Made by a program: the position numbers and the translations under genes. Shown here piece by piece: positions 23,609 through 37,969 of a DNA stretch of 64,000 nt (positions are counted from its first letter, which is position 1; the number at the start of each line of letters is the position of its first letter). The stretch lies in contig NZ_CADFDU010000007.1 in the NCBI RefSeq assembly GCF_902833045.1, forward strand, positions 1 through 64,000, read 5' to 3'. Under the pieces are notes generated by a model. It was not told the origin of the DNA. It worked only from the letters and a program-made list of their open reading frames with translations, and did not search any database. This stretch comes from Burkholderia sp. BCC0322 (lineage in GTDB: Bacteria > Pseudomonadota > Gammaproteobacteria > Burkholderiales > Burkholderiaceae).

Positions 23609-24613
23609 TTACTTCGCGTTCACGAAATCGTTCGTGAAGGTGCGCGCCAGGTCGACATGCTTGCCCTTCACCGACGGGTTGAACGCCGACAGCACCTTCA
23701 GCACGGTCGCCGGGCCGTCGGCCGGCATCTTCGCGTCGGCGGTGAACATCGGCAGCGACGCCTTCAGCGCGCTCACGTACAGCGCCTTGTCCTTCTGGTA
23801 GTCGGCCGGCATCTTCGCGGCAATCTCTTCGGCGCTGTGCGTGTGGATGAACTGCATCGTCTTCGCGAATGCGTGCGCGAGCTTGGTGGCTTCCGCCTTG
23901 TGCGAATCGGCCCACGCCGACTGCACGTACAGGCTCGCGGCCGGGTAGGTGCCGCCGAGCGCGGCGCGCGTGCCTTCCAGCGTGCGCAGGTCGACCAGCA
24001 CCTTCGCGTCGCCCATCTTCTCGAGCGCGGACACGGTCGGCTCGGTCGTCATCCCGGCGTCGATACGGCCCTGCTTGATCGCGGCGATGAAGCTCGCGTC
24101 GGCGCCGACCGGCAGCATCGTGTACTGCGTCGACGGCACGCCGTGCGCGAGCGCGAGGTATTGCGTGAGGAAGCTGGTCGACGAGCCGAGGCCCGTCACG
24201 CCGAGCGTCTTGCCCTTCGCGTCGGCCATCGACTTGAAGGTCGGCGCGGCCTTGGTCGACACCATCTCGACTTCGCCCGGCACCTGGCCGAACACGGCGA
24301 TCGCCTTCACGTCCTTGCCCTTGCTCTGCAGGTCGATCGTGTGGTCGTAGAAGCCGACCACACCCTGCACGGCGCCCGCGAGCAGTTCGTTCTCCGCGTC
24401 GACGCCGGCCGGCTGCGACAGCAGCTCGACGTCGAGCCCTTCGGCCTTGAAGTAGCCGAGTTCCTGCGTGAGCCGCGCGGGCAGGTAGATCAGCTTCGCG
24501 ATCCCGCCGACCATGATCGTGATCTTGCCGCCGTCATCGGCGAAAGCGGGGGCAGCGGCAAGCGCGCAGCTCAGGCTGGCTGCAACGGCGAGGGTGCGCA
24601 GGATGGGTCGCAT
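23609..24613 (-). CDS. ABC importer periplasmic substrate-binding protein
   Basis: The 334-residue protein has a signal peptide ending AFA-DD (about residue 25) and the NMT1/SsuA-like fold. It contains IYLPARLTQELGYFKAEGLD near the start and LGVTGLGSSTSFLTQYLA in the middle. These proteins bind small organic ions and deliver them to the permease. Start 24613 has a GGAG ribosome site. It is the first gene of an apparent six-gene set: binding protein, ATPase, permease, kinase, regulator, porin. The ligand is unknown. Confidence 0.9.
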   Translation of the reverse strand: MRPILRTLAVAASLSCALAAAPAFADDGGKITIMVGGIAKLIYLPARLTQELGYFKAEGLDVELLSQPAGVDAENELLAGAVQGVVGFYDHTIDLQSKGKDVKAIAVFGQVPGEVEMVSTKAAPTFKSMADAKGKTLGVTGLGSSTSFLTQYLALAHGVPSTQYTMLPVGADASFIAAIKQGRIDAGMTTEPTVSALEKMGDAKVLVDLRTLEGTRAALGGTYPAASLYVQSAWADSHKAEATKLAHAFAKTMQFIHTHSAEEIAAKMPADYQKDKALYVSALKASLPMFTADAKMPADGPATVLKVLSAFNPSVKGKHVDLARTFTNDFVNAK

Positions 24614-24671
24614 CGGGTCGTCTCCGTTCGTTGTATTCGTATGGCGCGATGCTTGCTGCATCGTCACGACG

Positions 24672-24698
24672 AGTATAGGGACGCGAAACCTTCTGCAA
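24672..24698 (-). promoter_or_regulatory. Candidate promoter of the ABC/two-component operon
   Basis: The minus strand reads TTGCAG (24698-24693) and TATACT (24677-24672) with a spacer of 15 bases, shorter than ideal. A direct repeat AAGGTT overlaps the -35, which could be a regulator site. It is the best sigma-70 match before the substrate-binding protein gene. Confidence 0.45.
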
Positions 24699-24713
24699 CC
24701 TTTCGCGGGGCGG

Positions 24714-25009
24714 CGGTTCGTTTAGGGGTTTTCCACGAACCCCGGGCGCATGCTCGAAGAGCGTGCTTCCAGCCGGATTGCGCTGTGGGCTGGAATGACA
24801 ACAGGCCTGTCAAATGCCGGTTTCTCGCCATTACGCTTTGGCAGGCACGAACGGGGTCGTCCATTGCGCGCAGACCAACTACGGAAACATGACATCTCGA
24901 CAACGTCGTTGGTCGGCAGGAAGCATCGCGTTGCGCAGTGTTCCGACTGTGATTTTTCCTTGATCGATTCGAAACCTGTTCCGAACTTATATTTCATGTT
25001 GACCATGCA
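24714..25009. other. Non-coding gap between ABC operon and LuxR gene
   Basis: About 300 bases between two divergent genes. Base composition shifts toward A/T in the right half. No gene, strong hairpin or clear promoter for the LuxR gene is seen. Confidence 0.5.
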
Positions 25010-25654
25010 ATGAATCCAACCACCATCGCCATCACCGACGACCATCCGGTCGTGATCGAAATGCTTAAGCGTCTGCCGCAGTGGGGATCGGAATTCCTCA
25101 TTGCACATTGCTGTAATAGCGGTATGGAGTTGATCGACGCATTGACACGCTCGCCGGTCGATCTCGTCATCGTCGACTATTCGATGAATCGGGGCGATAA
25201 ACCGATCGATGGCCTGAGGCTGCTGCGCAGGCTACATGACGTCGCGCCTGGTGCGCAATGCGTGATGCTGACCGCGCAGAAAAATCCGAGCGTTTTCGCG
25301 GCCGCACTGCAACTGGGTGTGAAAGCCATCGTCAGCAAGGAAGACGGGATTGACGAGATCGTGCATGCGTGCCGACATGTGCGCGCCGGCCGAACGCGGT
25401 ATTTCTCCCCGACGGTTCGCGAAATCGTCGAGCAATCCGGCACGATCAGCCGCGGCTCCCACGCAAAGCTGACACAAAGGGAACTTGACGTCGTGCGCCT
25501 GTTCGCGTTGGGCTACTCGCTCTCGAGCATCGCAAAAAAGCTCGGCCGCTCGGTCAGTACCGTGTCGACACAGAAATACATGGCGATGAAAAAGCTGCAG
25601 GCCGATACGAATATCAATCTGATCCGCTACGCGTACGAAAGTGGGCTGATTTGA
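25010..25654 (+). CDS. LuxR/RcsB-type response regulator
   Basis: The 214-residue protein has a receiver domain with phosphoacceptor D56 (VIVDYSMN) and acidic residues D10-D11. A C-terminal LuxR helix-turn-helix follows (about 150-205, LTQRELDVVRLFALGYSLSS then KKLGRSVSTVSTQK). The type is that of RcsB, FimZ and BvgA regulators, which often control fimbriae. No kinase gene is adjacent. It heads the plus-strand set beside a chaperone-usher locus, so control of the pilus or of the nearby peptide genes is likely but inferred. A 22-residue copy of its C-terminus recurs at 26775. Confidence 0.9.
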   Translation: MNPTTIAITDDHPVVIEMLKRLPQWGSEFLIAHCCNSGMELIDALTRSPVDLVIVDYSMNRGDKPIDGLRLLRRLHDVAPGAQCVMLTAQKNPSVFAAALQLGVKAIVSKEDGIDEIVHACRHVRAGRTRYFSPTVREIVEQSGTISRGSHAKLTQRELDVVRLFALGYSLSSIAKKLGRSVSTVSTQKYMAMKKLQADTNINLIRYAYESGLI

Positions 25655-25846
25655 CGAAGGGCGATGCCGTACTGGCGGCCGGTAATCGTGAACGTCGCAG
25701 CGCCTTTGGCGCGACCTGTCAAAATTGCAAGGTTCAGAATGGGAACCCCAAATATTCGACGACGGGACCGACTCGCCGATTTCTCATGGCGTGTCACGCG
25801 GTGTCAGTTTCTCATCGCACATGAGCAGTACTCAACGTTTGAAAAA

Positions 25847-26122
25847 ATGGACACTTTACGATGCTCAGATTTCTATTGGACGAGCACCCTTCCTCTCATA
25901 GTCGGCGCATCTATTAAATACAAATTCATCGATAACTTCACGAGAGTATTGGTCATGATTTTCATCGCAAGAGTAATGAACGCAATTCTCTCGATTATTG
26001 CAATTAATTTTATAAATATCAAATTCATGATCCTGCCGGCAGGAGCGGCGTCTGCGCTATTGATCACAGCGATAGGTGTCGCATTAAGTGAGTCGTTTTT
26101 TTATATTTTCAGAAGGAGATAA
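25847..26122 (+). CDS. Small two-helix membrane protein, possible immunity protein
   Basis: The predicted 91-residue protein has two long hydrophobic segments (about residues 34-58 and 60-82) and ends FFYIFRRR. DNA here is strikingly A/T-rich for this genome. Its stop overlaps the start of the next gene (TAATG), and the next gene's ribosome site lies inside its last codons; this coupling is the main support for it being real. No ribosome site is seen before ATG 25847. The frame is open further upstream, so the start is uncertain. A small hydrophobic protein coupled to a bacteriocin-like peptide could be its immunity protein; that is a guess from layout. Confidence 0.45.
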   Translation: MDTLRCSDFYWTSTLPLIVGASIKYKFIDNFTRVLVMIFIARVMNAILSIIAINFINIKFMILPAGAASALLITAIGVALSESFFYIFRRR

Positions 26123-26418
26123 TGAAAGTGACATATTCCGCCCATAACAAAGAAATGATGCTTGTCTGCGGTACGTTCGATGCTGTCGATACTCTCGGCA
26201 ATCTTCGCATTCTGTCCGATGATGAACGATTGCTGGTCGCGGGCGCCGGCAACCCTTGGGGAGCCGTAGTTGGTGGTCTGCAAGGCTCGGTTGTAGGCGG
26301 GATCGGCGGTGCCGTTACAGGGCCAATGCTCGGTGTCCCTTGGACCGTCAATGGCCTTGCGGGCATGGCGACCGGCGCTATCCAGGGCGCCTTCGCCGGC
26401 TGGTCCGGCCCACGCTAA
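26122..26418 (+). CDS. Glycine-rich bacteriocin-like peptide precursor
   Basis: The 98-residue product has a long N-terminal part ending in LSDDERLLVAGA. This resembles the tail of a double-glycine leader with GA in place of GG. A glycine- and alanine-rich tail with repeated GG/GA spacing follows (NPWGAVVGGLQGSVVGGIGG to about residue 98). A strong ribosome site, AAGGAGATA, stands right before the ATG. The composition is close to that of the peptide at 32718-33032. The C39-peptidase exporter encoded from 35288 could cut and export it. It could instead be a non-secreted glycine-zipper protein. A long leader and imperfect motif lower confidence. Confidence 0.55.
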   Translation: MKVTYSAHNKEMMLVCGTFDAVDTLGNLRILSDDERLLVAGAGNPWGAVVGGLQGSVVGGIGGAVTGPMLGVPWTVNGLAGMATGAIQGAFAGWSGPR

Positions 26419-26774
26419 TTGAGAGTCGTGCGAGATACCGACGCATCGAGATATTGTGCGTCGGTGGCCGGCATGCGATGCACGCCTATCCGGCATTGGC
26501 GCTTGGCGTCATTGCATCGAGAATCCTGTATTCCACTTGGGCACGCCGGCTCCCACTTCAGCGACGTTGCCGCCCAGTTACCAAAGCAATTGAGGATGGC
26601 GACGACGGAGATCGCACCTCGCCCAGGGCCAACATGCCGTCGATACAGCCCGTCAGACCTTCGGTGCCGGCGACAGCCAGGCCGAAACGATCCCTACGGA
26701 CGATCGTCACACAGGTCTGCACATGCGTTCGCATCGCGCAGGCGAAGAGAGCCGGACGCCGTTCTTCATATGCG
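26419..26774. other. Decayed region without intact gene
   Basis: About 350 bases between the peptide gene and the LuxR fragment. Short open frames exist on both strands, but none has a ribosome site or recognisable domain. The stretch may be remnants of a second regulator or peptide gene. Confidence 0.4.
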
Positions 26775-26843
26775 ATGCAGAAGCAGCAGGCCGATTCCAA
26801 CGTCCACTTGATTCGTTACGCGTACGAAAACGGATTGATCTGA
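26775..26843 (+). pseudogene. Fragment of a LuxR-type regulator gene (3' end)
   Basis: The last 22 codons read MQKQQADSNVHLIRYAYENG then LI and stop. They align without gaps to the C-terminus of the regulator at 25010 (MKKLQADTNINLIRYAYESG then LI), and the DNA is also similar. No helix-turn-helix or receiver domain is found upstream in any frame. This is the remnant of a duplicated or second fimbrial regulator gene. Confidence 0.7.
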
Positions 26844-26854
26844 TCGCTCGCGCG

Positions 26855-27859
26855 CTATTTGTAGCTGATCGTAAATGTCGCCGTGCCATTGGCGGTGCCC
26901 GGGCGGGTACCGGATTTCGTCTGGTAATAGCGCGCTGCCAGCGGCACCGACAGCGTGCTCGCGGGCGGCGCATCCGTCACCTTCCACGGCGTGCCGAGCG
27001 ACACCGGGTTGCCGTCGCCCTTGAGCAGCTGGATGCCGACGCCTTGCGCCGTACTCGACGACGACAGCGACAGGATGCCGCTGGATGCGTTGTCCGCGTT
27101 GCCGTCGAGCGTCAGGTTGACCGCGAAACTGCCGGCGACTTGGGCATCGCACTTCAGGCCGATCGTGAAGCCTTTCGACGTGGATGTCGTGCCGATGCCG
27201 GAACCCAGTCCCGACGATTTGCTGAGCTTGTGGGTGCCGAGATCCACGGCCACCTGCGTGGTCGACGGCGCGCAGGTGGCTGCCTGGAACGAGATGTTCT
27301 TGAAGCCGTAGGTGACGTAGCGGGCCGCTTTCGAATAATCCTTGTTCGGGCCGCCGATCAGCGCCGTCAGCACCGACAGGACCGGAAACACCCTCGGCGT
27401 GGACGGCGTCGCCCCGATCTTCACCAGCTCGACGTCGATCGTCGCGGAAACGGTCGTCGGCGTCAGCGACGAACTGATGATCGTCCCCATCGGAAACGAT
27501 GCGTCCCCGGTACCGCGATTGCCGTTATAGGTCACGTACAAGCCGAGACCGTTCGCCGTCAGGTCGGGGTCGGCCATCCATCGATAGAGCGTCGCCTCGA
27601 AGTTCGCCGACGCAACGGTCTTCATGCAGGACGCCTTGATTTCGATCCCTGTCTTGCTCCAGAGCACCGTGCCGATCGGCGCATCGGCCGCGACCCTGAA
27701 CGGATCGGGCAGCGTACCGAGTTCCGCCGTGCTCACGTTCTGGCAATTCGCGGCCGCCTGCGCGGTGCCCGCGCCCGCCGCGCAGGCCAGCAGGCCCGCC
27801 GTGCAAGCCAGCCTGATGCGATGGATGGGTGTGTTCCAGTCGTTCATGTGCGATTTCAT
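26855..27859 (-). CDS. Fimbrial tip adhesin-like protein
   Basis: The 334-residue protein has a signal peptide (cleavage after about residue 35, AQA-AA). A two-domain layout follows, with an N-terminal lectin-like half and a C-terminal pilin half ending GTATFTISYK, the pattern of chaperone-usher donor strands. Cysteine pairs in each half fit fimbrial adhesins. It is the last gene of the pilus operon, 32 bases after the usher. Starts at 27859 (MKSHMNDW) and 27847 are both possible. Which surface it binds cannot be told. Confidence 0.8.
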   Translation of the reverse strand: MKSHMNDWNTPIHRIRLACTAGLLACAAGAGTAQAAANCQNVSTAELGTLPDPFRVAADAPIGTVLWSKTGIEIKASCMKTVASANFEATLYRWMADPDLTANGLGLYVTYNGNRGTGDASFPMGTIISSSLTPTTVSATIDVELVKIGATPSTPRVFPVLSVLTALIGGPNKDYSKAARYVTYGFKNISFQAATCAPSTTQVAVDLGTHKLSKSSGLGSGIGTTSTSKGFTIGLKCDAQVAGSFAVNLTLDGNADNASSGILSLSSSSTAQGVGIQLLKGDGNPVSLGTPWKVTDAPPASTLSVPLAARYYQTKSGTRPGTANGTATFTISYK

Positions 27860-27891: not shown

Positions 27892-30562
27892 TCATGCAGG
27901 CGGGGCCGCGTGCCGCGGCGCATCGCCGGGACCGGACGGCCGCGCGTCGAATTCGCACGGGGCGTCGACGCGCTGGATGGCGACCTGCCGCGCGCCGGCA
28001 TCGAGCGGCGGCAACGCCACGCGGATCGAACATTGCCACGCGTCGGCGTGCCCCCATTTCACCGTCAGCTTTTCGTCCGGTTCCGCGATGCGCGCATAGA
28101 TCTGGCCGCCCTGCGACACCACGCCGACGTTGTTGCCGCGTGCGTCGAATACCGGCGCGCCGAACGGCAATTCCCGGCCGGTCGGCGTCGATGCATGAAT
28201 CAGCAGTGCACGCCCCTTCACGGTCGGGTAGCGCAGCATCACGACGGCGCCCTGACGCGGCGCCACCTGCAGGCTCGTCGTCTGCAGCTCGACGTCGGCG
28301 GGCAGGCCGCGCGGGTCGATCTCGATCTGGTTGACCCGGTACGGATTCAGGTACGGCACGACCGCGTAGCCGCGCCCGTCGAGCGCAACGCCGCCGTATC
28401 CGACCACCCTGGCGCCACTCGCCGCCGGCACCGCGACGACGGCAACCGTGTCGGCCGCATAGGGGGACGCCGTTATGCCACCCGGATGCGCGACGATCGC
28501 GCCAACTCAATCCGACCGAGCCAGACCCGTAGCGATCGCCCTTGGCGAACGCGCCCTGAACCGTCGTGTACGGCGTGCGGTACTGGCCGGACACGCTGCC
28601 CGAATACGTCGCACCCACGTCGCGCGACGCGGAAACCGAATAGCTGCCCTGGTTCTGCGTACCGACGAAGCCGCTCGCCGTCATCATCGACGTGACCCCG
28701 CGCACGCTGTCGTGCGCGACGTTCGCACTTGCGCGCGGCGCTTGTGCCGAGCGACCGAGCGGCAGCGACACGGTCAGCATGTACTGCGTATCGACGTCGC
28801 CGCCGATCGCGCGGGCGCGGTTGACCGAGATGCTGTAGTCGACGATGCGGAAACGGTTGCTGTAGCCGATCTGGAATTGCGTGTCGGTGCCGCGGCGCTC
28901 CCAGTAGTTCTGCGTGTACGCGCTCACGAACAACTGGCCGCCGTTGTCGCCGAACCGCTGCGATGCGGTGACCGATACCCGATTGCGCGCGCGCCAGAGC
29001 GGCTGTTCAGTGAGGCCTGTCGCGTTGCGCCTGGCGTTGTCGACGTAGGCGAGCGCGTTGTCGAGATCGAGATAGCCGGACGACGAGAAGCGATACGCTG
29101 CCACCGACAGGTTGCTGTTCGTCGCTTCCAGCGTCTTGCTGTACGTGATGCGCACGCTCGCGCCGCTTGCCCGCCGGCCGTTCGACGATGTGAATGCACC
29201 GGACACGTCGAGCGCCATCGCGCCGATCGGCGTGTTGAACGCACCGCCGACGAGCAGGTTCTGGTAGTCCTCGTTCGCGAGCACGCCGCCATACAGCGTC
29301 AGCAGGTTGGACACGCCACGCGCGTAGGTCGCCTGCACGATGTGCGGCGTATACGACAGGTTCCGCTTGCGCACCACGCCCGCGACGAAACCGAACCGGT
29401 TCATGCCGGGCCGCAGCGATTGCACGACCGATGCGTACGGCACCTTGAATACCCGCTCGCTGCCGTCCGATTCGGTGACGGTCACGTCGAGATCTCCGCC
29501 GTAACCGGTCGGATAGAGGTCGTCGATCACGAACTGGCCGGGCGGCACGGTCGTTTCGTAGATGACCGCGCCGCTCTGGCGCACGGTCACGCGCGCATTC
29601 GAATTCGCGATGCCGCGAACGACCGGTGCATAGCCGCGACGGGAATCGGGCCACATGCGATCGTCGCTGGCGATCTGCACGCCGCGAAACGGAAACGTAT
29701 CGAACAGCTCGCCGGACGTGTTCGCGTCGCCGAGCCTGACGCGCGCCTTGAGCGCCGTCAGGTCGCGTTGAACGTAGGTGTTGGTGATGCTGTAGTGCTG
29801 GCCGCCGCGATTCTGCCAGTTCAGCGCGCCGTCGTGACGGAAGTACCATCCGCCCGCATTGATGCCGGCGTTCAGTCCGACGTATGCCGCGCTGTCGCTC
29901 CGGCCGTTCACGACGTTTCCATAGAGATTCGCGCTGTAGCCTACGAATCCCGCGGTCACGCCGCTGTCCCACATCGACGGATCGACGTAGCCGCGGGCCG
30001 TGCGGCGCAACAGCGCTTGCGGGACATGGATGTCGAGGCGCGCCGAGCCGGCGTCGAACGACGCCGACGCGCCCGGCAGCAGCGAATCGAGCGATTTGCA
30101 CGCGGCGGGATCGGCGAGCGGCGCGAGCGCTTCGGGCGCAATCCGGCTCGTATCCGCGTTGATCCTGTCGAGCATGCGGCGGCTGAAGCACACTTGCGGG
30201 CCGTTTGCGCCCGATTCGCGCACGGTGACGTCGTCGCGGCCGAGCAGCGCCCCGTTCAGGTACACGTCGGCCCGGTATTCGCCGGGCCAGACCGGGTTGC
30301 CCTTCTCAAAACGGGACAGGTCGATTCCGCTGTCCGGCGACGTCAGCACGAAGTCCGGGTCGAACTGCAGCGCCCGGGACGGCAGCGCGTCCCCCCGGCC
30401 CGGCCCGCCGATCCGGGGCTGCGGATCGGCGGGCGCAAGCTCGCTCGCCGCTGCGCCGAGCGGCAGTGCCGACCAGGCGAGCAACGCCGTCGCGTACGAC
30501 CGCCGGAGCACGAGCGCCGGCCGACCGGTGCGCGGACCGGATGCGGGATGGATGCATTTCAT
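27892..30562 (-). pseudogene. Fimbrial usher, split by a one-base frameshift
   Basis: The outer-membrane usher exports pilus subunits. The N-terminal frame (30562 to about 28505, about 686 residues) has signal peptide, periplasmic domain (FDPDFVLTSPDSGIDLSRFE), long barrel (NTYVQRDLTALKARVRLGD) and middle domain. At about 28504 the reading shifts. The frame that continues naturally, GAIVAHPGGITASPYAADTV through to PSGPGDAPRHAAPPA, lies one base over and ends at 27892. Removing one A from the plus-strand AA at 28504-28505 (AGTTGG to AGTGG on the coding strand) restores one usher of about 890 residues, a normal length. As it stands the frame runs on into non-usher sequence. It is either a mutated usher, a phase-type switch or a sequence error. 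Confidence 0.85.
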
Positions 30563-30677: not shown

Positions 30678-31451
30678 TCAAGGCGTGGCCTCGAGCACCG
30701 CCGGCCATTTCACGTCGGTGCCGAAGTCGTTGATCGTCGAATAGTCGAGCTTTGTGCCGGCCGGGAGGCTCGGCAGCGGCATGTTCAGCGCAAACAGACG
30801 GTCGGCACCGGGCGCGATCATCGCGCCGTCGTCGATCGTGTACGTGCGGCCGTCGTGCACGACTTGCGCCGACAGCACGGTGACGTTGAACGGCGACGAA
30901 TTGGTCGCGTGCAACAGGTGGCCTTTGCCGCCGTCCGGCGCGGGCGCGAGTGACCATTTCACGCCTTTGGCCGCCTCGACCGCCCCATCGGCGTCGAGGC
31001 CGGCCGGCCGGAAGAACACCTTGATTCGCGAACGGAACGCGAGCTGCAGCATGGTCGTCGACGGCTGATCGGCGGTTTTCGGCGGAATGTCGAGTACGTT
31101 CAGCCAGAACACGGATTCCCGGTCTTGCGGCAGCGGATCGCCGGTATAGACGATCCGCAACGTCTGTCCCTTGCCCGGATCGACGCGAAAGATCGGCGGC
31201 ATCAACACGAAAGGCACCTTGGCCGTGCCCGGGCGCGAGCGTGGGTCGCCGTCGTCGAGCCATGCCTGCACGAGCGCCGGATCGGTGCCGACGTTGTCGA
31301 TCTTGGCGGTGATCTCCCGATCGCTGGCCGGATAGACGAGGCGCGTGCCGGAAATGATCACGCCCGCGATGCCGTGCTGTACGGTGCAGGCCAGCACGAC
31401 GCATGCACAGATCGGCAACCGGCGGAAGAGAAACGAGAGGAGCGAGTACAT
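30678..31451 (-). CDS. Fimbrial periplasmic chaperone
   Basis: The 257-residue PapD-like chaperone has a signal peptide (to about residue 30). Two immunoglobulin-like domains follow: GVIISGTRLVYPASDREITA in the first strand region, then FRVDPGKGQTLRIVY and ESVFWLNVLDIPPK, the usual chaperone signature. It caps pilus subunits in the periplasm by donor-strand complementation and hands them to the usher. It lies 115 bases before the usher gene and 130 after the major subunit gene. Confidence 0.92.
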   Translation of the reverse strand: MYSLLSFLFRRLPICACVVLACTVQHGIAGVIISGTRLVYPASDREITAKIDNVGTDPALVQAWLDDGDPRSRPGTAKVPFVLMPPIFRVDPGKGQTLRIVYTGDPLPQDRESVFWLNVLDIPPKTADQPSTTMLQLAFRSRIKVFFRPAGLDADGAVEAAKGVKWSLAPAPDGGKGHLLHATNSSPFNVTVLSAQVVHDGRTYTIDDGAMIAPGADRLFALNMPLPSLPAGTKLDYSTINDFGTDVKWPAVLEATP

Positions 31452-31581: not shown

Positions 31582-32124
31582 TTACAGATAGTCGATCGAG
31601 TACGTGACCGACGTGCTTACGCTGCCTGCCGTCGCCGCGCCGAGCGAGTAGTACTGCGCGCCATAGACCATCGAGGCTGCGTTGTTGACGAGGTCGACCG
31701 GCCGGCCGTTGCGTTGGCTGACATCACCGGCCTTCAGCGCTTTGCCGTCCATGTCGAGAAGCTGCACGGCGACGTTGGCCGCGGCGTTGGTCAGTGCGCG
31801 GTTGTAGAGCGTGCCGTCCCCGCCGTTGACGTTCGGGCCGGCTTCGAAGAACGCGCGCACCGATTTGCCCGCGTTCGTGCAGTTGCTGAGCGCGATAGTG
31901 AAGTTCGTCGCACCCGTTACCGCGCCCTTCGACGCCAGCGAAGCCGCGCCCACGCTCGGAAGCTGGACTGTACCGTTGTTGTCGGCATCGTTGACCTTGA
32001 TGGTGCAGCTGGCGCCGCTCAGCGCACCCGTGATGTTCACGGTGCCGTCGTATGCATGCGCCGCGAGCGGCATGAACGACATCGCCGACGCCGTTGCGGA
32101 GGCCAACAGAATTTTCTTCATCAT
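31582..32124 (-). CDS. Major fimbrial subunit (type 1 pilin family)
   Basis: The 180-residue protein has a signal peptide ending AHA-YD (about residue 24). A type 1 pilin fold follows, with the donor-strand region and conserved cysteines (GALSGASCTIKV and LSNCTNAG). It ends in the usual penultimate tyrosine segment (VTYSIDYL). ATG codons at 32124 and 32121 are both usable, with AAAGGGA upstream. It is the first pilus gene and follows the second double-glycine peptide gene by 233 bases. Confidence 0.93.
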   Translation of the reverse strand: MMKKILLASATASAMSFMPLAAHAYDGTVNITGALSGASCTIKVNDADNNGTVQLPSVGAASLASKGAVTGATNFTIALSNCTNAGKSVRAFFEAGPNVNGGDGTLYNRALTNAAANVAVQLLDMDGKALKAGDVSQRNGRPVDLVNNAASMVYGAQYYSLGAATAGSVSTSVTYSIDYL

Positions 32125-32357: not shown

Positions 32358-32609
32358 TTATCGGCCGGTCGGGCGAGCCGCGGCGGCGAGGACGGCGAGG
32401 ACCGACGCAGTCGCAGCGGCCGCGATTGCGACGCCTGTCGCGAAGACGACCTTGCCGAGCGTCTCTACAGCGCCCGTCTGGGTGTTGTCCGAAGGAAACG
32501 GATTGACCCAGGGTTCGCGCGGCGCGGCCGGCTTGAACAGGCTGTTGATCCAGTCGGCGATGCCGCCGCCCGAAACGGTCGCGAGTTCCATCTTGCTGAT
32601 TTCACGCAT
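32358..32609 (-). CDS. Double-glycine leader peptide, small (microcin-like)
   Basis: The 83-residue precursor starts with MREISKMELATVSGG, a 15-residue double-glycine leader that matches class II microcin leaders such as microcin V (MRTLTLNELDSVSGG) in length and key positions. The predicted mature part begins GIADWINSLFKPAAPREPWV and ends with a hydrophobic alanine/valine helix (about residues 55-77). It lies after the first peptide gene and in the same direction as the C39 exporter, which would cut after the glycine pair. No similar mature sequence is recalled. A secreted antibacterial or signalling role is inferred. Confidence 0.75.
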   Translation of the reverse strand: MREISKMELATVSGGGIADWINSLFKPAAPREPWVNPFPSDNTQTGAVETLGKVVFATGVAIAAAATASVLAVLAAAARPTGR

Positions 32610-32717
32610 GATTCACCTTCTGACGAAATCGGATTGACATGGCCGGCATCGCGTCGCGCGTGCCGGCCCGTGCTATGACGGCAGCAGGCGCCACTGGAAC
32701 GGCGCCCCCGCCTCGCA

Positions 32718-33032
32718 TTACTTCGGTGCCGGCAGGTTCGGGTCGAACAGGCCTTCCATCACGCGGTTGAAGACCTTGAGCGTCTGCTGCGACCCATTAA
32801 CCAAGCCGTAAATCTTGCCGCCGAGCAGGCCCAGCCCGGCGCCGACGAGCAGGCCGACACCGGCGCTGAGGATGCCTGCGCCCAGGATGCCGCCCGTGCT
32901 GCCGCCCGTTGCGGCACCCTTGAAGCCGCCGGCAACCAGGCCTGCAACGCTGCCCAGCACCCCCGCCCCCAGATTGCTGAAAAGGCCGCCACCGCTTACT
33001 TCATTCAATTCCATCGTGGTCAATTCGCGCAT
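32718..33032 (-). CDS. Double-glycine leader peptide, glycine-zipper type (microcin-like)
   Basis: The 104-residue precursor starts with MRELTTMELNEVSGG, again a microcin-V-type leader. The mature part, about 89 residues, is rich in glycine, alanine and leucine with GxxxG-like spacing (GLFSNLGAGVLGSVAGLVAG onward), then a charged tail ending LPAPK. Such glycine-zipper sequences form membrane-inserting helices in class II bacteriocins and microcins. It lies 105 bases after the exporter gene, and a strong stem-loop lies between them. No immunity gene is obvious next to it. Antibacterial activity is an inference from leader, composition and context. Confidence 0.8.
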   Translation of the reverse strand: MRELTTMELNEVSGGGLFSNLGAGVLGSVAGLVAGGFKGAATGGSTGGILGAGILSAGVGLLVGAGLGLLGGKIYGLVNGSQQTLKVFNRVMEGLFDPNLPAPK

Positions 33033-33093
33033 TTGAAGTTCTCCCTACAGTTACGCACTGCCGATCGTCGAAAGCCGGATCGGCATCGGCTCT

Positions 33094-33118
33094 CCCGTCG
33101 CGCATCGTGCGCGACGGG
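33094..33118 (-). promoter_or_regulatory. Strong intra-operon stem-loop
   Basis: A perfect 10-base stem (CCCGTCGCGC with GCGCGACGGG) has a 5-base loop in the gap between the exporter and first peptide genes. There is no T run, so full termination is unlikely. It could stabilise or process the message so that peptides are made at a different level from the exporter. Confidence 0.55.
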
Positions 33119-33137
33119 CACTCCACTTGCGGCGGCG

Positions 33138-35288
33138 CTAGGCGGCCTCCGGATCGAACCGCGCGCCGACGCCCATTTCGCGTGCGCTGCCTCGCGCGAG
33201 TTCGACGACGCGATCCGCGCTCCGGATCGTCTCCGGCCGGTGCGCGATGATGATCCGCGTGATGTTCATCGCGCGCACCGCATCGTTGATCAGCCGCTCG
33301 CGTTCAACGTCGAGATGGCTGGTCGCCTCGTCGAGCACGAGAATCGCGGGTTTCCGGTAGAAAGCACGGGCGAGCAGCACGCGCTGGCACTGGCCGCCGG
33401 ACATCGACGAGCCCATGTCGCCGACGAGGCTCTGATAGCCCATCGGCATCGCCGCGATGTCGTCGTGGATCTGCGCGAGCCGCGCGGCTTCCTCGATGCG
33501 CGCCTGGTCGGGCTGCGGATCGAAGAAGCCGATGTTGTCGGCGATCGAGCCGGCGAACAGGATGTCGTCCTGCATCACGCAGCCGATCAGCTCGCGGTGC
33601 TGATGGAGCCCGAGCTTGCGGATGTCGATGCCGTCGACGCTCACGCTGCCGTGCTCGGGCGTCAGCAGGCCGAGCAGCACCTTCGCCATCGTGGTCTTGC
33701 CCTGGCCCGACGGGCCGACGAGCGCGACCGATTCTCCCGGCGCGATCGAGAACGAGCAGCCGTCGAGCACCCACGGTTCGGTCTCCGTGTAGCGAAAGCG
33801 CACGTCGCGCACGTCGATCGCGGGCGCCGCCGCGTGGCCGCCCGCCGCCGGCGCGCGCGCGGCCTTCGCTTCCATGTCGGATTCGGCGTCGGTCAGCACG
33901 ATGTCGGCGAGCCGCTCGCCGTGCAGCCGCAGCATCCGGAAATCGATCACCGTGCCGATCAGGCCCGCGCCGCGCGCCATGAACTGATCGGCAAAGCTGA
34001 CGAACGCGACCAGCATCCCCGCCGAGAACTGCCCGTCGATCACCTGTTTCGCGGCCAGCCACACGAGCGCCACGCGGCCCGCGCCGGAGATCACGCCCTG
34101 CAGCGTCGAGAAGCCGATCGACAGCCGCTGGATCACGACGTTCTTGTTGGTGGTCTCGACCACGGCATTCGCATAGGTCGCCACGCGCGCCTCCTGCTTG
34201 TTCGCGAGCTTGATCGCCTGCACGCCGCGGATCGACTCGAGCAGGTTCGATTCCGCGCGGGCCGCGTACACGATGTGTTCCTCGTTCGCCTGCCGGAACG
34301 GCCGATACGCAAGCCAGCGGATTGCGCCATACGCGGCGAACAGCCCGAGCACGAGCCACGTGAGCGTCGGGCTGTAGACGAACAGCATTGCGAGCGTGAC
34401 GATTGCCATCGCGCCGTCGAGCAGCGCGCCGACGAATTGCGTCGTGAGCGTGCCCTGGATCGTGCCGATCGCGCCGAACCGCGACACGACGTCGCCGATG
34501 TGGCGCTGCTCGAAGTACGTCATCGGGAGCCTGAACAGATGCGAACAGACGTTCGCCGTCCACTGCACCCCGAGCAGGCTCGAGAACCACGTGACGACCC
34601 ACGAGCGCAGCGCCGCGACCGCGTTCTGGAACAGCACGACGAGCAGGAAGCCGATGCCGAGCAGCGTCAGCAGGTCGGCGTCGGCCGACACGAGTACCTG
34701 GTCCATCACCCACTGCATGTAGAACGGCGTGACGATGCCGAACACCTCGAGCGCGACGGACAGCAGCAGCACCTGCGCGAACGCCGCGCGGATGCCGGTG
34801 ACGCCGCCGATGAGCGTCGCCATCGAGATCGATTCGCGCTCGCGCGCCCGCGCGAACGACGGCGACGGCATCAGCTCCAGCGCGACGCCCGTGAAGTGGT
34901 CGGACACTTCGGCAAGCGGCACGTCGCGCACGCCGCGCGCGGGATCGTGGATCGTGATCCCGCTGCGCGACACCGACTTCAGCACGACGAAGTGATTCAT
35001 GTCCCAGTGCAGGATGCACGGGCGCCGCAGCTTGCCGAGCTCGTCGAGTTCGAGCCGCAGCGCGCGCGACGCGAGGCCGAGCCGGTAGGCCATCAGCATC
35101 ACGTCGTTGAGCGTCGCCCCTTTCAGCGACGGGCTGAAGCGTCTGCGCAGGCTGACGAGGTCGAGATCGCGGCCGTGATAGCTCGCGATCATCCCGACGC
35201 ACGCGAGCCCGCACTCGGCCGCCTGCGTCTGCAGCATCACGGGCAGGCGACGGCGCCAGCCGAATTGCAGGGCATCCATCCATTTCAT
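33138..35288 (-). CDS. C39-peptidase ABC exporter of double-glycine peptides
   Basis: The 716-residue transporter is a bacteriocin-type exporter with protease, membrane and ATPase domains. The C39 peptidase (residues 1-130) has catalytic C26 (QTQAAECGLACVGM), H99 (WDMNHFVVL) and D115 (HDPARG), so it should be active and cut at GG leaders. Six membrane helices follow (about 160-440). The ATPase has Walker A GPSGQGKTT, signature MSGGQCQRVLLAR and Walker B ILVLDEATSHLD. It forms a type I system with the adaptor and TolC-like proteins upstream. The two double-glycine peptides just downstream are the likely substrates. Confidence 0.95.
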   Translation of the reverse strand: MKWMDALQFGWRRRLPVMLQTQAAECGLACVGMIASYHGRDLDLVSLRRRFSPSLKGATLNDVMLMAYRLGLASRALRLELDELGKLRRPCILHWDMNHFVVLKSVSRSGITIHDPARGVRDVPLAEVSDHFTGVALELMPSPSFARARERESISMATLIGGVTGIRAAFAQVLLLSVALEVFGIVTPFYMQWVMDQVLVSADADLLTLLGIGFLLVVLFQNAVAALRSWVVTWFSSLLGVQWTANVCSHLFRLPMTYFEQRHIGDVVSRFGAIGTIQGTLTTQFVGALLDGAMAIVTLAMLFVYSPTLTWLVLGLFAAYGAIRWLAYRPFRQANEEHIVYAARAESNLLESIRGVQAIKLANKQEARVATYANAVVETTNKNVVIQRLSIGFSTLQGVISGAGRVALVWLAAKQVIDGQFSAGMLVAFVSFADQFMARGAGLIGTVIDFRMLRLHGERLADIVLTDAESDMEAKAARAPAAGGHAAAPAIDVRDVRFRYTETEPWVLDGCSFSIAPGESVALVGPSGQGKTTMAKVLLGLLTPEHGSVSVDGIDIRKLGLHQHRELIGCVMQDDILFAGSIADNIGFFDPQPDQARIEEAARLAQIHDDIAAMPMGYQSLVGDMGSSMSGGQCQRVLLARAFYRKPAILVLDEATSHLDVERERLINDAVRAMNITRIIIAHRPETIRSADRVVELARGSAREMGVGARFDPEAA

Positions 35289-35329
35289 CGTTCAACGGGC
35301 TCCATAGCGAATCGAATGCGCGGGGGCGT

Positions 35330-36589
35330 TCATGCCGACGCGCGGCGGCCGAGCGCGTACAGCGGCTCGAGCACCCACTCGATCAGCCGGCGCTGGTCGA
35401 TCAGCACGTCGGCCTCGAGCGCCATCCCGGGGCGCAGCGTTTCGCGCCTGCCGTACGCGACGATGTCCTGGCGATCGAGCGCGACGACCACGCGGTACAG
35501 CTGCTCGGGCACGTTGGTGCGCCCGGTGAGGTTCGCGACTTCCTGAGGCGACAACGCGGTGCGCGATACGTCGGTCACGCGGCCGAACTGCTGGCCGAAT
35601 TTCTGGAACGGGTAGGCCTCGTAGCGAAGCACGACGCGCGCGCCGGTACGCACGAAGCCGATCGCGCGACTCGGCACCATCAATTGCGCCTCGAGCAATG
35701 CGCCCTGCGGCAGCAGCGAAACGACCGACTGGCCCGCGTTGACGACCTGCCCGGGTTTCGCGAGCAGCGTCGCGACAACGCTCGCCTGAGGTGCGCGCAG
35801 GATCACCGCGCGGCGTGCCTCGTTTTCCGCGATCGACTGGTCGACGTCGGCGAGCTTGCGCTCGATGTCATTCTGCTGATTGCGGGTATTGAGCGGCAAT
35901 TCGCGCAGCTGCTGGCGGATCTGGTCGAGCTGCTGCTCGACGTCGAGCCGCTGGCGCGCGAGATCCTGCAGCCGCGCCTGCGCATCGAGCAGCGCGGCTT
36001 CCTGCTGCTCGACCTGGCTGTTCGACGCGTAGCCCTGCTCGCGCATCGACTGCAGCTTGCCGAGCTGCCGCAGCGAGAGTTCGGCCTGGCGCGTGCGCTG
36101 CGTCTTCTGCAGCGCGATCTGCGCGAGCTGGTCGTTCAGCGCCGCGGCGCGCGCATGCAGCCCACGTTTCGCCTCGCCGCTCAGTTGCGACTGGCTCGCG
36201 AGATCGGTCTCGAGGCGCGCACGCTGAAGATCCAGCTGCTCGCGGACCCGCTCGCGCGTGCCGCCGAGCTCGGTCGCGACTTCGGCCGACACGGCCATCA
36301 GCTCGGCGCCGGCCGCGACGGTCTGTCCCTCGCGCACGCGCGTGTCGATCACCGTGCCCGTCAGCGGCGGCATGACGGCCAGCAGCCCTTTCGCGGGCAG
36401 CAGCTGGCCGGCGACGCGCTCGCGCTTCGTGTAGGTGCCGAGCACGAAGAACGCGACGACCGCAAGCGCCGCGGCCGTCGCGACACCGATCGTCAGCCAG
36501 CGCCACGGCGGCGAATACAGGCTGACCGTGCCCATCAGCTTGTGCTTGGTCGCGTCGAGCGCTTCCTGACGGAACAGCGAATCAGTCAT
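35330..36589 (-). CDS. HlyD/CvaA-like membrane fusion protein
   Basis: The 419-residue protein has one membrane segment (about residues 31-52). A lipoyl-like half (GLLAVMPPLTGTVIDTRVREGQ) is split by a long coiled coil (about 105-250), and a C-terminal beta-barrel region follows. This is the type I secretion adaptor layout, closest to CvaA of the microcin V system. It bridges the ABC exporter and the TolC-like protein in the periplasm. It lies 48 bases after the TolC-like gene and 41 before the exporter gene. Confidence 0.92.
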   Translation of the reverse strand: MTDSLFRQEALDATKHKLMGTVSLYSPPWRWLTIGVATAAALAVVAFFVLGTYTKRERVAGQLLPAKGLLAVMPPLTGTVIDTRVREGQTVAAGAELMAVSAEVATELGGTRERVREQLDLQRARLETDLASQSQLSGEAKRGLHARAAALNDQLAQIALQKTQRTRQAELSLRQLGKLQSMREQGYASNSQVEQQEAALLDAQARLQDLARQRLDVEQQLDQIRQQLRELPLNTRNQQNDIERKLADVDQSIAENEARRAVILRAPQASVVATLLAKPGQVVNAGQSVVSLLPQGALLEAQLMVPSRAIGFVRTGARVVLRYEAYPFQKFGQQFGRVTDVSRTALSPQEVANLTGRTNVPEQLYRVVVALDRQDIVAYGRRETLRPGMALEADVLIDQRRLIEWVLEPLYALGRRASA

Positions 36590-36637
36590 GTGTCGCTACC
36601 GGTGAGATCGAATGGAGGGAGACGGAATCGCGCATGG

Positions 36638-37969
36638 TCAGCCTGCCGGGCGGCATGCAATCGCGGCGACGTCCGCTTCGCCGAGCGTGCCGAGCGCGGC
36701 CGACAACTGCAGCCGCGCGCGCAGATAGCGATAGCGCGCGTCCGCAAGATCGCGGATCGCCTCGAAATAGCGCTGCTGCGCGTTGAGTTCGTCGATCTGC
36801 GTGCGCAGCCCGACTTCGCGGCCCAGGTGGGTCGACTTCACCTTGCTGTCGGCCGACGCGAGAGCGCGTTCTTGCGCGCGGATCAGCGCGGCGCCGTTGG
36901 TGATGCCGAGATACGCGGCACGGGCGTGCTCGCGAGCCTTGCGGCGCGCATCCTCTAGCGCGTTGCGTGCCTGGTCGCGCCGACGGTAAGCTTCGCGGCT
37001 CGCCGACAGCGTGCCGCCGCCGGCAAACAGCGGGATCGTGACTGTCACGCCGATCATCGACGAGCGGGTTTTCGACGTCGTGCCGAACACGGTGTCGAGC
37101 CCGTTCTCGTTGGCGCCGCGGCTCCAGTTCGTGCCATAGCTCGCCTGCAGGTTCACGACCGGCAGGTGCGCGCCCGTCGCGGCGACGACGTCGGCCTGTG
37201 TCTGCTCAGCCAGCTTCTCGGCGATCCGCACCTCGACGTTCTCGAGCGCGGCCTCATCCATTGCGGTCGCGAGATCGACTGGCGGCGTCTGCGGCGCGCA
37301 CTGCCATGCGACCGGCGCAAGCGTATCCGCCGCGAGGCCCGTGAGCCGCCGCAGCGTGCCGCTCGCGATTTCGAGATCGTTCTGCGCGCTGACCTTGCGC
37401 GCGAGCGCTTCGTCGAGGTTCGCGCGCGCCTCGTCCACGTCGGTGCGCGTGCCATCGCCGATCCCCAGCGCCGCCTGCGCCTGGTCGAGTTGCTTATGGA
37501 ATGCCTGCTGGGCGGTTTCGGCGGCCTGCAACACTTCGCGTCCAAACAGGACGTCGAAATAGGCGCTGGCGACATCGGTGATCAGGGTTTGCGACGCCTT
37601 CTCATACTCGATGTCCGCCTGGTCGGCAAGCGTGCCGCCGCGCTTGAAATCGGCGACGCGGGACACATCGAACAGCGGCTGTGTGACGGTTACGGAAGCG
37701 CTGTGACGGCGGACCGCTGCCGCATACGCCGCGGTGGGCTGGTCCTGCTTCGTGTAGCTGCCGTTGAGTTCTGCGCGCGGCAGCAGCCCCGCAAGACCTT
37801 GCCAGCGCTTCTCGCGGCCGGCGAGCTGTGCGTTGCGCGCCGCGCCGATGCCCGCATCGAAGCGCCGCGCCGCGTTCACGGCGTCGAGCAGGTCGGCCGC
37901 CTGCACCGGCCATGCGGCGCCGAGCCAGCCAAGAACCGCCACCAGCTGGAAGGATCGTGTCGAAATCAT
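36638..37969 (-). CDS. TolC-like outer-membrane channel protein
   Basis: The 443-residue protein has a signal peptide ending VQA-AD (about residue 25) and the TolC/OEP repeat (ADLLDAVNAARRFDAGIGAA, and its echo in the second half). TolC-type tails end near LGTLGEADVAAI. It is not a lipoprotein. It is the first gene in the minus-strand run that continues through adaptor, exporter, peptides and pilus genes. A dedicated TolC in such an operon is consistent with a self-contained secretion system. Confidence 0.92.
   Translation of the reverse strand: MISTRSFQLVAVLGWLGAAWPVQAADLLDAVNAARRFDAGIGAARNAQLAGREKRWQGLAGLLPRAELNGSYTKQDQPTAAYAAAVRRHSASVTVTQPLFDVSRVADFKRGGTLADQADIEYEKASQTLITDVASAYFDVLFGREVLQAAETAQQAFHKQLDQAQAALGIGDGTRTDVDEARANLDEALARKVSAQNDLEIASGTLRRLTGLAADTLAPVAWQCAPQTPPVDLATAMDEAALENVEVRIAEKLAEQTQADVVAATGAHLPVVNLQASYGTNWSRGANENGLDTVFGTTSKTRSSMIGVTVTIPLFAGGGTLSASREAYRRRDQARNALEDARRKAREHARAAYLGITNGAALIRAQERALASADSKVKSTHLGREVGLRTQIDELNAQQRYFEAIRDLADARYRYLRARLQLSAALGTLGEADVAAIACRPAG

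What the first reader, a model, noticed from the sequence alone, without database searches (positions are those of the whole stretch)
32358..37969. Microcin-V-type secretion cassette with two novel double-glycine peptides
TolC-like, CvaA/HlyD-like and C39-peptidase ABC genes are followed by two small genes whose leaders MRELTTMELNEVSGG and MREISKMELATVSGG match class II microcin leaders (microcin V: MRTLTLNELDSVSGG). The peptidase triad C26/H99/D115 is intact. The mature parts are unlike peptides I know: one is a glycine-zipper of about 89 residues, the other has a PAAPREPWVNPF segment plus a hydrophobic helix. This looks like a complete, undescribed peptide export system, possibly a two-peptide microcin.
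Basis: partly seen in the sequence, partly recalled or inferred. Interest (0 to 1): 0.82.

Follow-up and report, generated by a model that had tools for sequence, protein, structure and literature searches.

The report
Peptide exporter fused to adhesive fimbriae
In some Burkholderia and Pantoea strains, a microcin-type export machine that should secrete two small peptides is inherited together with the genes of its own sticky surface fibres, which suggests that the peptides act where cells touch and makes that idea easy to test.

Summary
In detail: an intact minus-strand set of TolC, HlyD and C39-peptidase ABC transporter genes, followed by two double-glycine-leader peptides, pep1 (glycine zipper) and pep2. 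The reading as a two-peptide microcin is only partly supported, and the stated borders cut the system. Directly downstream lie genes of a chaperone-usher fimbria (usher frame interrupted here), then a LuxR-type regulator. The joint module (exporter, pep1, pep2, fimbria) is in 15 pep1 loci read in sequence: Burkholderia, another Burkholderiales family, Pluralibacter and Pantoea plasmids. On plasmids, 38 of 44 pep1 records carry the cognate usher and exporter; 6 carry neither. The module's chaperones group apart from other chaperones of the held genomes, with weak support. No conserved candidate immunity gene was found beside pep1/pep2. A separate pair outside the finding, a glycine-zipper peptide (26122-26418) overlapping a small hydrophobic ORF, fits a microcin with immunity better; one relative has it beside this exporter with no fimbria found. 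Best reading: a fimbria-coupled, Cdz-like peptide secretion module whose peptides act at cell contact. Whether they kill or build matrix is open. Ten paper searches showed no description of the joint module.

The parts
36638..37969 (-). TolC-family outer-membrane channel of the exporter
   Evidence: Pfam OEP 6.4e-54; NCBIfam TIGR01844 type_I_sec_TolC above its cut-off
35330..36589 (-). HlyD/CvaA-type membrane fusion protein
   Evidence: Pfam HlyD_3 2e-14; NCBIfam TIGR01843 type_I_hlyD 5.5e-38 but below its cut-off
33138..35288 (-). C39-peptidase ABC transporter (PCAT), triad C26/H99/D115, Walker A at 525, MSGGQ at 629
   Evidence: 47% to McbB of Moraxella pLQ510; near full-length PDB match to ABC-type bacteriocin transporter 4ry2
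32718..33032 (-). pep1: 104-aa glycine-zipper peptide, leader MRELTTMELNEVSGG
32358..32609 (-). pep2: 83-aa peptide, leader MREISKMELATVSGG, PWVNPF segment and one C-terminal hydrophobic helix
31582..32124 (-). FimA-type fimbrial subunit
   Evidence: Pfam FimA 6.4e-13, Fimbrial 1.3e-11
30678..31451 (-). PapD-type periplasmic fimbrial chaperone
   Evidence: Pfam PapD_N 5.4e-44; groups with the other module chaperones
27892..30562 (-). fimbrial usher; its reading frame is interrupted in the window relative to relatives (described only)
26855..27826 (-). adhesin-like terminal fimbrial subunit (start approximate)
   Evidence: Pfam Fimbrial 2.7e-18 on 26858-27748
25010..25654 (+). response regulator with LuxR-type DNA-binding domain
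   Evidence: Pfam Response_reg 2.7e-17, GerE 8.9e-9; searched with the Pluralibacter regulator, a LuxR-type regulator is in 10 of 11 other module loci, window included, and not in G189 (G189 again none)
25955..26122 (+). small hydrophobic protein, candidate immunity protein of the third peptide (55 aa from the ATG at 25955; longer starts possible)
26122..26418 (+). third leader peptide (glycine zipper, leader ending LLVAGA), ATG overlaps the preceding stop (TAATG)

Best explanation
A fimbria-coupled peptide secretion module. The C39-ABC transporter recognises the MRE-type leaders of pep1 and pep2, cleaves after the GG/GA motif and passes the peptides through HlyD and TolC to the outside. A dedicated chaperone-usher fimbria with an adhesin-like subunit, inherited with the exporter and probably under the neighbouring LuxR-type response regulator, holds the cell to a neighbour or surface. 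Pep1 forms a glycine-zipper helical hairpin and, with pep2, stays at or near the cell surface, where it inserts into or aggregates at the membrane of the cell held by the fimbria: a Cdz-like contact weapon with its own fibres. Shown: gene set, leaders, catalytic triad, co-inheritance of peptides, exporter and fimbria. Inferred: cleavage, export, surface retention, co-regulation, contact action, lethality.
For: Same joint module in 15 loci read in sequence: window, G001, G002, G007, G008, G019 (two loci, one a variant), G035, G039, G056, G189, Pluralibacter MAG, B. ubonensis plasmid pRF23, P. agglomerans and Pantoea sp. Nvir plasmids. In Pantoea pep1-pep2-FimA-chaperone-usher-adhesin-regulator-TolC-HlyD-PCAT run on one strand. 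Plasmid collection: 44 records with pep1, of which 38 have the cognate usher and the PCAT, and 6 have neither (many of the 38 are near-identical Pantoea plasmids). The 14 module chaperones form one side of a branch against 36 other chaperones of nine held module genomes plus 7 near-module ones, 0 of 500 label shuffles as low. In 13 loci distances of PCAT track those of chaperone, FimA and pep1 (r 0.84, 0.83, 0.68; 0 of 5000 permutations each). The window's pep1 fits the four criteria for Cdz-like proteins printed in PMC5380434 section 13 (the polar tail judged by eye); that paper reports adhesion genes near Cdz-like loci and CdzC on surface fibrils of unknown genes.
Against: No conserved immunity-like ORF beside pep1/pep2 in 12 loci scanned, none in the peptide stretch of 3 more. 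Pep2 has no GxxxGxxxG in 10 of 10 rows. dN/dS 0.20-0.41 shows no sign of diversifying selection. AlphaFold models are low confidence (pLDDT 63 and 65). In one of the 15 loci (G019 contig 4) the nearest chaperone belongs to another fimbria and lies 6.7 kb away. The same exporter clade also sits beside other fimbriae without pep1/pep2 (G011, G013, G053, B. stagnalis), so the partners can be exchanged. In 5 further pep1 loci read, pep1 stands without exporter and cognate fimbria. The usher frame is interrupted in the window, so this strain may make no fimbria. The one-clade result for the chaperones has only 60/89 support, 56% of bootstrap trees, and long branches among its rows; other chaperones of Pantoea, Pluralibacter and B. 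ubonensis were not sampled. CdzC/D were not compared.
Confidence: 0.45

Rival explanations
1. Non-lethal surface peptides: the exporter secretes pep1 and pep2 as matrix or adhesion factors that work with the fimbria in aggregation or biofilm formation, as the GG-leader EbfG proteins do in Synechococcus.
For: No conserved immunity-like ORF in the loci scanned; peptides co-inherited with a fimbria and mostly near a response regulator; purifying selection; precedents: GG-leader proteins and a C39 transporter needed for biofilm, with surface and amyloid-forming products (abstracts of PMC4997328 and PMC9981879); the GG-leader Nap peptides of the gonococcus do not kill competitor species (PMC11798529, passages).
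Against: The PCAT is kin to bacteriocin exporters (47% to McbB; 42% from the Pluralibacter PCAT to CvaB and MchF), and the same exporter clade is paired with a microcin-like peptide and an immunity-like ORF in G018. No homology to EbfG was tested.
Confidence: 0.33
2. A conventional diffusible two-peptide class II microcin; the fimbria is an independent neighbour.
For: Exporter, triad and leaders are of microcin type; pep1 and pep2 in tandem in 14 of the 15 module loci read (in G189 another leader peptide stands between them).
Against: No conserved immunity-like ORF; a fimbria in 15 of 15 loci read that have pep1, pep2 and exporter, and of one chaperone group in 14 of 15; exporter and cognate usher are missing together in 6 of 44 pep1 plasmid records.
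Confidence: 0.12
3. Pep1 is the toxin and pep2 is its immunity or antidote: a small one-helix protein next to the toxin gene, unusually with an export leader.
For: By position and length pep2 would pass the immunity screen described in PMC9746304 (passages), and it has one membrane stretch; pep2 is directly behind pep1 in 14 of 15 module loci.
Against: Pep2 carries its own double-glycine-type leader in 15 of 15 aligned rows (VSGG, VPGG, VAGA, IAGA or VAGG), so it is predicted to be cleaved and exported; I know of no immunity protein made that way (recalled).
Confidence: 0.07

Closest known systems
Cdz system of Caulobacter crescentus (CdzABCDI; PMC5380434, passages and section 13 read)
   Same: T1SS-exported small glycine-zipper proteins with leader ending G[G/A/S], two peptides; authors report Cdz-like candidates in B. 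cepacia and adhesion genes (Tafi) in many of the regions; CdzC is associated with surface fibrils
   Different: Here one peptide of the pair is not a glycine zipper, no CdzI-like immunity gene was found, TolC is in the cluster, and a dedicated chaperone-usher fimbria is part of the unit; the cdz cluster has no adhesion genes
Class II microcins, type microcin V (CvaABC-Cvi, TolC)
   Same: PCAT with intact triad, MFP, TolC, GG leaders of the same pattern
   Different: The Pluralibacter PCAT of this group is about 42% identical to CvaB and MchF; no immunity gene found for pep1/pep2; fimbrial operon attached. The third peptide (26122-26418) fits this kind better
McbABCI of Moraxella catarrhalis pLQ510 (PMC2761928, abstract read)
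   Same: PCAT 47% identical to the window's; GG-leader cargo directly behind the PCAT
   Different: One cargo with an overlapping immunity gene mcbI, no fimbria on the 9.8 kb read of the 12.1-kb plasmid; McbC resembles pep1 only in the leader and the next 20 or so residues (41% over 37, E 0.003)
EbfG1-4/PteB of Synechococcus elongatus (abstracts of PMC4997328 and PMC9981879)
   Same: Several small GG-leader proteins with a C39 transporter, needed for biofilm; surface and matrix location
   Different: Cyanobacterial; no fimbrial operon mentioned in the abstracts; homology not tested
Nap island of Neisseria gonorrhoeae (PMC11798529, passages)
   Same: Several small GG-leader peptides with a C39 peptidase, not active against competitor species in the tests quoted
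   Different: Mature peptides of 16-36 residues, a LagC-like putative immunity gene, a FapF-like export channel, no fimbria found among the passages; homology not tested

Membership tests
Class II microcin system | precursor peptide with double-glycine leader | tested here: met
   pep1 and pep2 leaders; strict pattern hits only these two of 985 window ORFs
Class II microcin system | C39-peptidase ABC transporter with catalytic Cys/His/Asp | tested here: met
   16 of 16 aligned sequences, window included; the interrupted PCAT of G001 was not aligned
Class II microcin system | membrane fusion protein and TolC | tested here: met
Class II microcin system | cognate immunity protein for pep1/pep2 | tested here: not met
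   no conserved immunity-like ORF in 12 loci; only the peptides themselves in the stretch of 3 more. A distant, short or unconserved immunity gene is not excluded
Class II microcin system | immunity protein for the third peptide (26122-26418) | tested here: inconclusive
   a small hydrophobic ORF ends within -7 to +3 bases of the peptide start in 6 of 8 loci of this peptide family, window included; none in L062 and L066. Its function is inferred from place and hydropathy only
Class II microcin system | antibacterial activity | not testable with these tools
   needs culture work
Cdz-like contact-dependent system | 60-151 aa with leader ending G[G/A/S] | tested here: met
   pep1 103-105 aa, leader GG or GA in 11 of 12 rows, GT in G189; pep2 76-97 aa in the 10 rows, 73-97 aa in the 15 rows
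Cdz-like contact-dependent system | glycine zipper not interrupted by proline or charge, polar C-terminus | tested here: inconclusive
   pep1: 3-7 GxxxGxxxG free of proline and charge in 12 of 12 rows, tail judged by eye; pep2: 0 in 10 of 10
Cdz-like contact-dependent system | CdzI-like small membrane immunity protein | tested here: not met
   by hydropathy and conservation, not by comparison with CdzI itself
Cdz-like contact-dependent system | surface retention and contact-dependent killing | not testable with these tools
   needs culture work
Cdz-like contact-dependent system | sequence homology to CdzC/CdzD | not tested
   their sequences were not in hand; the paper says BLAST with CdzC/D found no hits
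Chaperone-usher fimbria | pilin, PapD chaperone, usher, terminal adhesin-like subunit | tested here: met
   Pfam and tblastn. The usher matches in two frames in the window; with the same query it matches in one piece in 9 of 10 other module loci, and the tenth (G019 contig 4) runs off the fetched stretch
EbfG-type biofilm proteins | GG-leader proteins exported by a C39 transporter and needed for biofilm | not testable with these tools
   leader and transporter type fit; role needs culture work

The most novel reading that the evidence does not exclude
Armed fimbriae: the exporter delivers hydrophobic glycine-zipper peptides onto the outside of a dedicated chaperone-usher fibre, so that one inherited unit both grips a neighbouring cell and carries the membrane-active peptides to it; a third, immunity-protected microcin can be loaded on the same exporter.
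Probability: 0.22. Interest if true: 0.85.

Novelty: new variant of a known kind. Interest (0 to 1): 0.62.

Why it matters
In Caulobacter the glycine-zipper toxin CdzC is associated with surface fibrils whose genes are unknown and whose role in attachment is open (PMC5380434, passages). Here a glycine-zipper peptide and a fimbria are one inherited unit, on Pantoea plasmids among others, so the question whether such peptides need a fibre to reach their target, or build the matrix instead, can be tested by single gene removals. It also warns microcin mining: the right exporter and leader do not by themselves make a cargo a bacteriocin.

Tried and rejected
Immunity gene: looked for as any unassigned ORF of 30-250 aa shared by at least 3 of 12 pep1 loci (379 ORFs). 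What recurred: the LuxR-type regulator; ORFs read from the same stretch on other frames or the other strand, several of them with one hydrophobic stretch; and ORFs of the flagellar neighbours, FliQ among them. Lone membrane ORFs occur in single loci (for example in L028 and L054) without conservation. The scan leaves out ORFs overlapping known genes by 30% or more and reaches 6.5 kb upstream and 7.5 kb downstream of the start of pep1; in the window this just misses the intact regulator at 25010-25654.

Exporter without pep1/pep2: of 14 Burkholderia loci with a PCAT at 74% or more (one, G001, in two pieces), 9 have pep1/pep2 and 5 do not (G011, G013, G018, G050, G053). In three of the 5 (G011, G013, G053) other fimbrial genes lie within the fetched 18 kb, of another chaperone group; G018 carries the third peptide instead; in G050 no peptide was recognised. 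On plasmids, 42 records have a PCAT at 58% or more to the Pantoea one and 38 of these have pep1 and usher; of the other four, P. deleyi and P. anthophila have a different fimbrial operon and a related leader peptide, P. vagans LMG 24199 has a fimbrial operon about 4 kb away on the other strand and no peptide that I recognised in the gene table, and B. stagnalis has fimbrial genes on both sides and no pep1/pep2 match.

Pep1 without the module: 6 of 44 pep1 plasmid records lack both cognate usher and PCAT. I read 5 of these 6: exporter and cognate fimbria are gone together; the annotated pep1 gene is short in four of the five. This fits loss as a unit but cannot tell killing from adhesion. Four weaker pep1 matches in Burkholderia (G050, G056 contig 80, G060, G065; E 2.8e-7 to 2.7e-4) are glycine-zipper leader peptides outside this module.

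The plasmid search with the window's own pep1 found nothing, although pRF23 carries a homologue 57% identical, so BLAST's low-complexity filter loses such peptides and the plasmid counts are lower bounds. The distant DNA search of E. coli genomes with the Pluralibacter stretch found nothing. The PDB profile search with pep1 found no relative (best E 0.089). No fold search was run because both models are weak. The sixth locus (Acetobacter fallax) matches pep1 in the leader only. Phylum sample: 1 of 398 genomes at E <= 1e-8, the nearest genome itself. The hairpin-like repeat between pep1 and pep2 was not analysed.

Papers: ten searches. Read: PMC5380434 passages and section 13; PMC8386478, PMC13174018, PMC11494933, PMC11798529, PMC9746304, PMC7773334, PMC3505739 passages; PMC2761928, PMC4997328, PMC9981879 abstracts with outline. 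Others were seen in search listings only. PMC3505739, on the large Pantoea plasmid, has no hit for type I secretion, HlyD, TolC or colicin in its main text and speaks of seven fimbriae.

Full report
What is there. On the minus strand from 37969 down, the window holds a TolC-family channel, a HlyD-family fusion protein, a C39-peptidase ABC transporter (PCAT) and two small genes, pep1 and pep2. The peptidase residues C26, H99 and D115 are present here and in the 15 relatives aligned. Pep1 has 104 residues, a VSGG leader and five overlapping GxxxGxxxG motifs; pep2 has 83 residues, a VSGG leader, no such motif, a PWVNPF segment and one hydrophobic helix. A strict leader pattern finds just these two among 985 ORFs of the window, and one hit in 20 shuffles together.

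What the borders left out. The next genes on the same strand are a FimA-type pilin (31582-32124), a PapD chaperone (30678-31451), an usher and a terminal adhesin-like subunit. The usher matches in two reading frames in this window; in 9 of 10 other module loci searched with the same query it matches in one piece, and the tenth runs off the fetched stretch. I describe this and went no further. Beyond lie a LuxR-type response regulator (25010-25654, plus) and a third leader peptide.

The module recurs. With the pep1 alignment, 10 of 65 Burkholderia genomes match at E <= 1e-3, 8 of them strongly (9 loci); 5 of 300 genomes of the order match, of which only G001 and G189 strongly; in a phylum sample only G001 of 398 matches at 1e-8. 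The 9 Burkholderia loci and the G189 locus have TolC, HlyD, PCAT, pep1, a pep2-like peptide, FimA, chaperone, usher and an adhesin-like subunit in the same neighbourhood; in G001 the PCAT lies in two frames, and in one of the two G019 loci pilin, chaperone and usher lie 6 kb further on. A Pluralibacter MAG contig has the same set, with a LuxR-type regulator in front and a third leader peptide behind the adhesin. B. ubonensis plasmid pRF23 has the set in the Burkholderia order; Pantoea plasmids have it rotated: pep1-pep2-FimA-chaperone-usher-adhesin-regulator-TolC-HlyD-PCAT. In the plasmid collection 44 of 72,556 records match Pantoea pep1; 38 of these 44 also match the usher, all 38 also match the PCAT, and the other 6 match neither (I compared the three printed lists by hand). 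Many of the 38 are near-identical, and the counts are lower bounds because a search with the window's pep1 found none of them.

It looks like a dedicated fimbria. The nine held genomes with the module have 46 PapD_N loci in all, 3 to 8 each, so a neighbouring chaperone is not expected by chance, although related loci are not independent. In a tree of 57 chaperones the 14 module chaperones lie on one side of a branch, apart from 36 other chaperones of these nine genomes and 7 near-module ones; 0 of 500 label shuffles do as well, but support is only 60/89, 56% of bootstrap trees show it, and some module rows are long. Other chaperones of Pantoea, Pluralibacter and B. ubonensis were not in the tree. 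The G019 variant falls outside. Distances of PCAT follow those of HlyD (r 0.97), chaperone (0.84), FimA (0.83) and pep1 (0.68) in 13 loci, 0 of 5000 permutations each.

The unit is not rigid. Of 14 Burkholderia loci with a PCAT at 74% or more, 5 lack pep1/pep2; three of these 5 have fimbrial genes of another chaperone group nearby, and so does a B. stagnalis record. In 5 Pantoea records read, pep1 remains where exporter and cognate fimbria are gone.

Immunity. Microcin systems are described as having five parts, one an immunity protein (PMC9746304, passages). I found none for pep1/pep2: 379 unassigned ORFs from 12 loci gave as recurrent sets only the regulator, ORFs on other frames or strands of the same stretch, and flagellar neighbours; in three further loci the peptides alone showed membrane stretches in the region scanned. 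Hydropathy scans of this kind can miss a short or lone immunity gene.

The third peptide. At 26122-26418 (plus) lies a 98-residue glycine-zipper peptide with a long leader ending LLVAGA. Its start overlaps the stop of a small hydrophobic ORF (TAATG, 26120-26124). Relatives occur in 4 of 65 Burkholderia genomes. In 6 of 8 loci of this family, the window included, a small hydrophobic ORF ends within -7 to +3 bases of the peptide start. In G018 peptide and partner sit next to a PCAT 84% identical to the window's, with no fimbrial gene found in the 18 kb fetched. Immunity gene first is also the natural order for microcin V (PMC13174018, passages). It is the part of the window that best fits a microcin, outside the finding.

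How it may work. The exporter chemistry follows from the family: C39 domains cut after the double glycine. The models of pep1 (helices 15-46, 50-79, 81-94) and pep2 (helix 44-77) are of low confidence, though they agree with membrane hairpins. In four Pantoea records a protein annotated as DcrB-related follows the PCAT, in a fifth none is annotated; two tested belong to Pfam DcrB, the family used to find the T6SS Eag chaperones that bind membrane helices of effectors (PMC7773334, passages). A helper of that kind would suit hydrophobic cargo; this is inference. My best reading is a Cdz-like module with its own fibre; the main rival is a non-lethal matrix or adhesion role, as for EbfG proteins. 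The missing immunity gene favours the rival; the exporter's kin and the third peptide favour antagonism. I leave the two close, 0.45 to 0.33.

Relation to what is known. The window's pep1 fits the published Cdz-like criteria (length, leader, zipper, polar tail); pep2 does not meet the zipper criterion, and no CdzI-like gene is found. So I do not file the module as a Cdz system or as a class II microcin; it works like the first at most. PMC5380434 already reports Cdz-like loci in B. cepacia and Tafi genes near many of its loci, so a link between such peptides and fimbriae is not a new idea; what is new here is a conserved joint module with its own chaperone-usher fimbria in Beta- and Gammaproteobacteria. 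In ten searches of the open library I met no description of it.

Noticed in passing
window 25955-26418 (+): Third double-glycine-type glycine-zipper peptide whose start overlaps a small hydrophobic, immunity-like ORF; homologous pair next to a related PCAT in G018 (L071).
   Followed up: yes
window about 27892-30562 (-): The usher reading frame is interrupted in the window; in 9 of 10 other module loci searched it matches in one piece. Described only.
   Followed up: partly
L003 8273-10418 (-) (G001): In the nearest genome the PCAT lies in two reading frames. Described only.
   Followed up: no
window 24001-26000 and about 26750-26843: Lowest G+C stretch of the window's 2-kb steps (0.586) with the regulator and most of the immunity-like ORF; a tail like that of a second LuxR-type regulator follows.
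   Followed up: partly
window about 32640-32675: GC-rich inverted repeat between pep1 and pep2 without a run of T (seen).
   Followed up: no
L083 15890-16321, L085 16816-17253: DcrB-family protein (PF08786) directly behind the Pantoea PCAT, the family of T6SS Eag chaperones.
   Followed up: partly
L054 (G189), L038: Extra leader peptides in the module: four in all in G189, one of them between TolC and HlyD and one between pep1 and pep2, and one behind the adhesin in Pluralibacter.
   Followed up: partly
L072, L073, L075: A second Burkholderia PCAT family at about 53% identity with its own leader peptides in front of HlyD; no module fimbria match in the fetched 15 kb.
   Followed up: no
L086, L087, L088, L091, L092: Pantoea plasmids that have lost exporter and cognate fimbria together and keep pep1, mostly annotated shorter.
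   Followed up: partly
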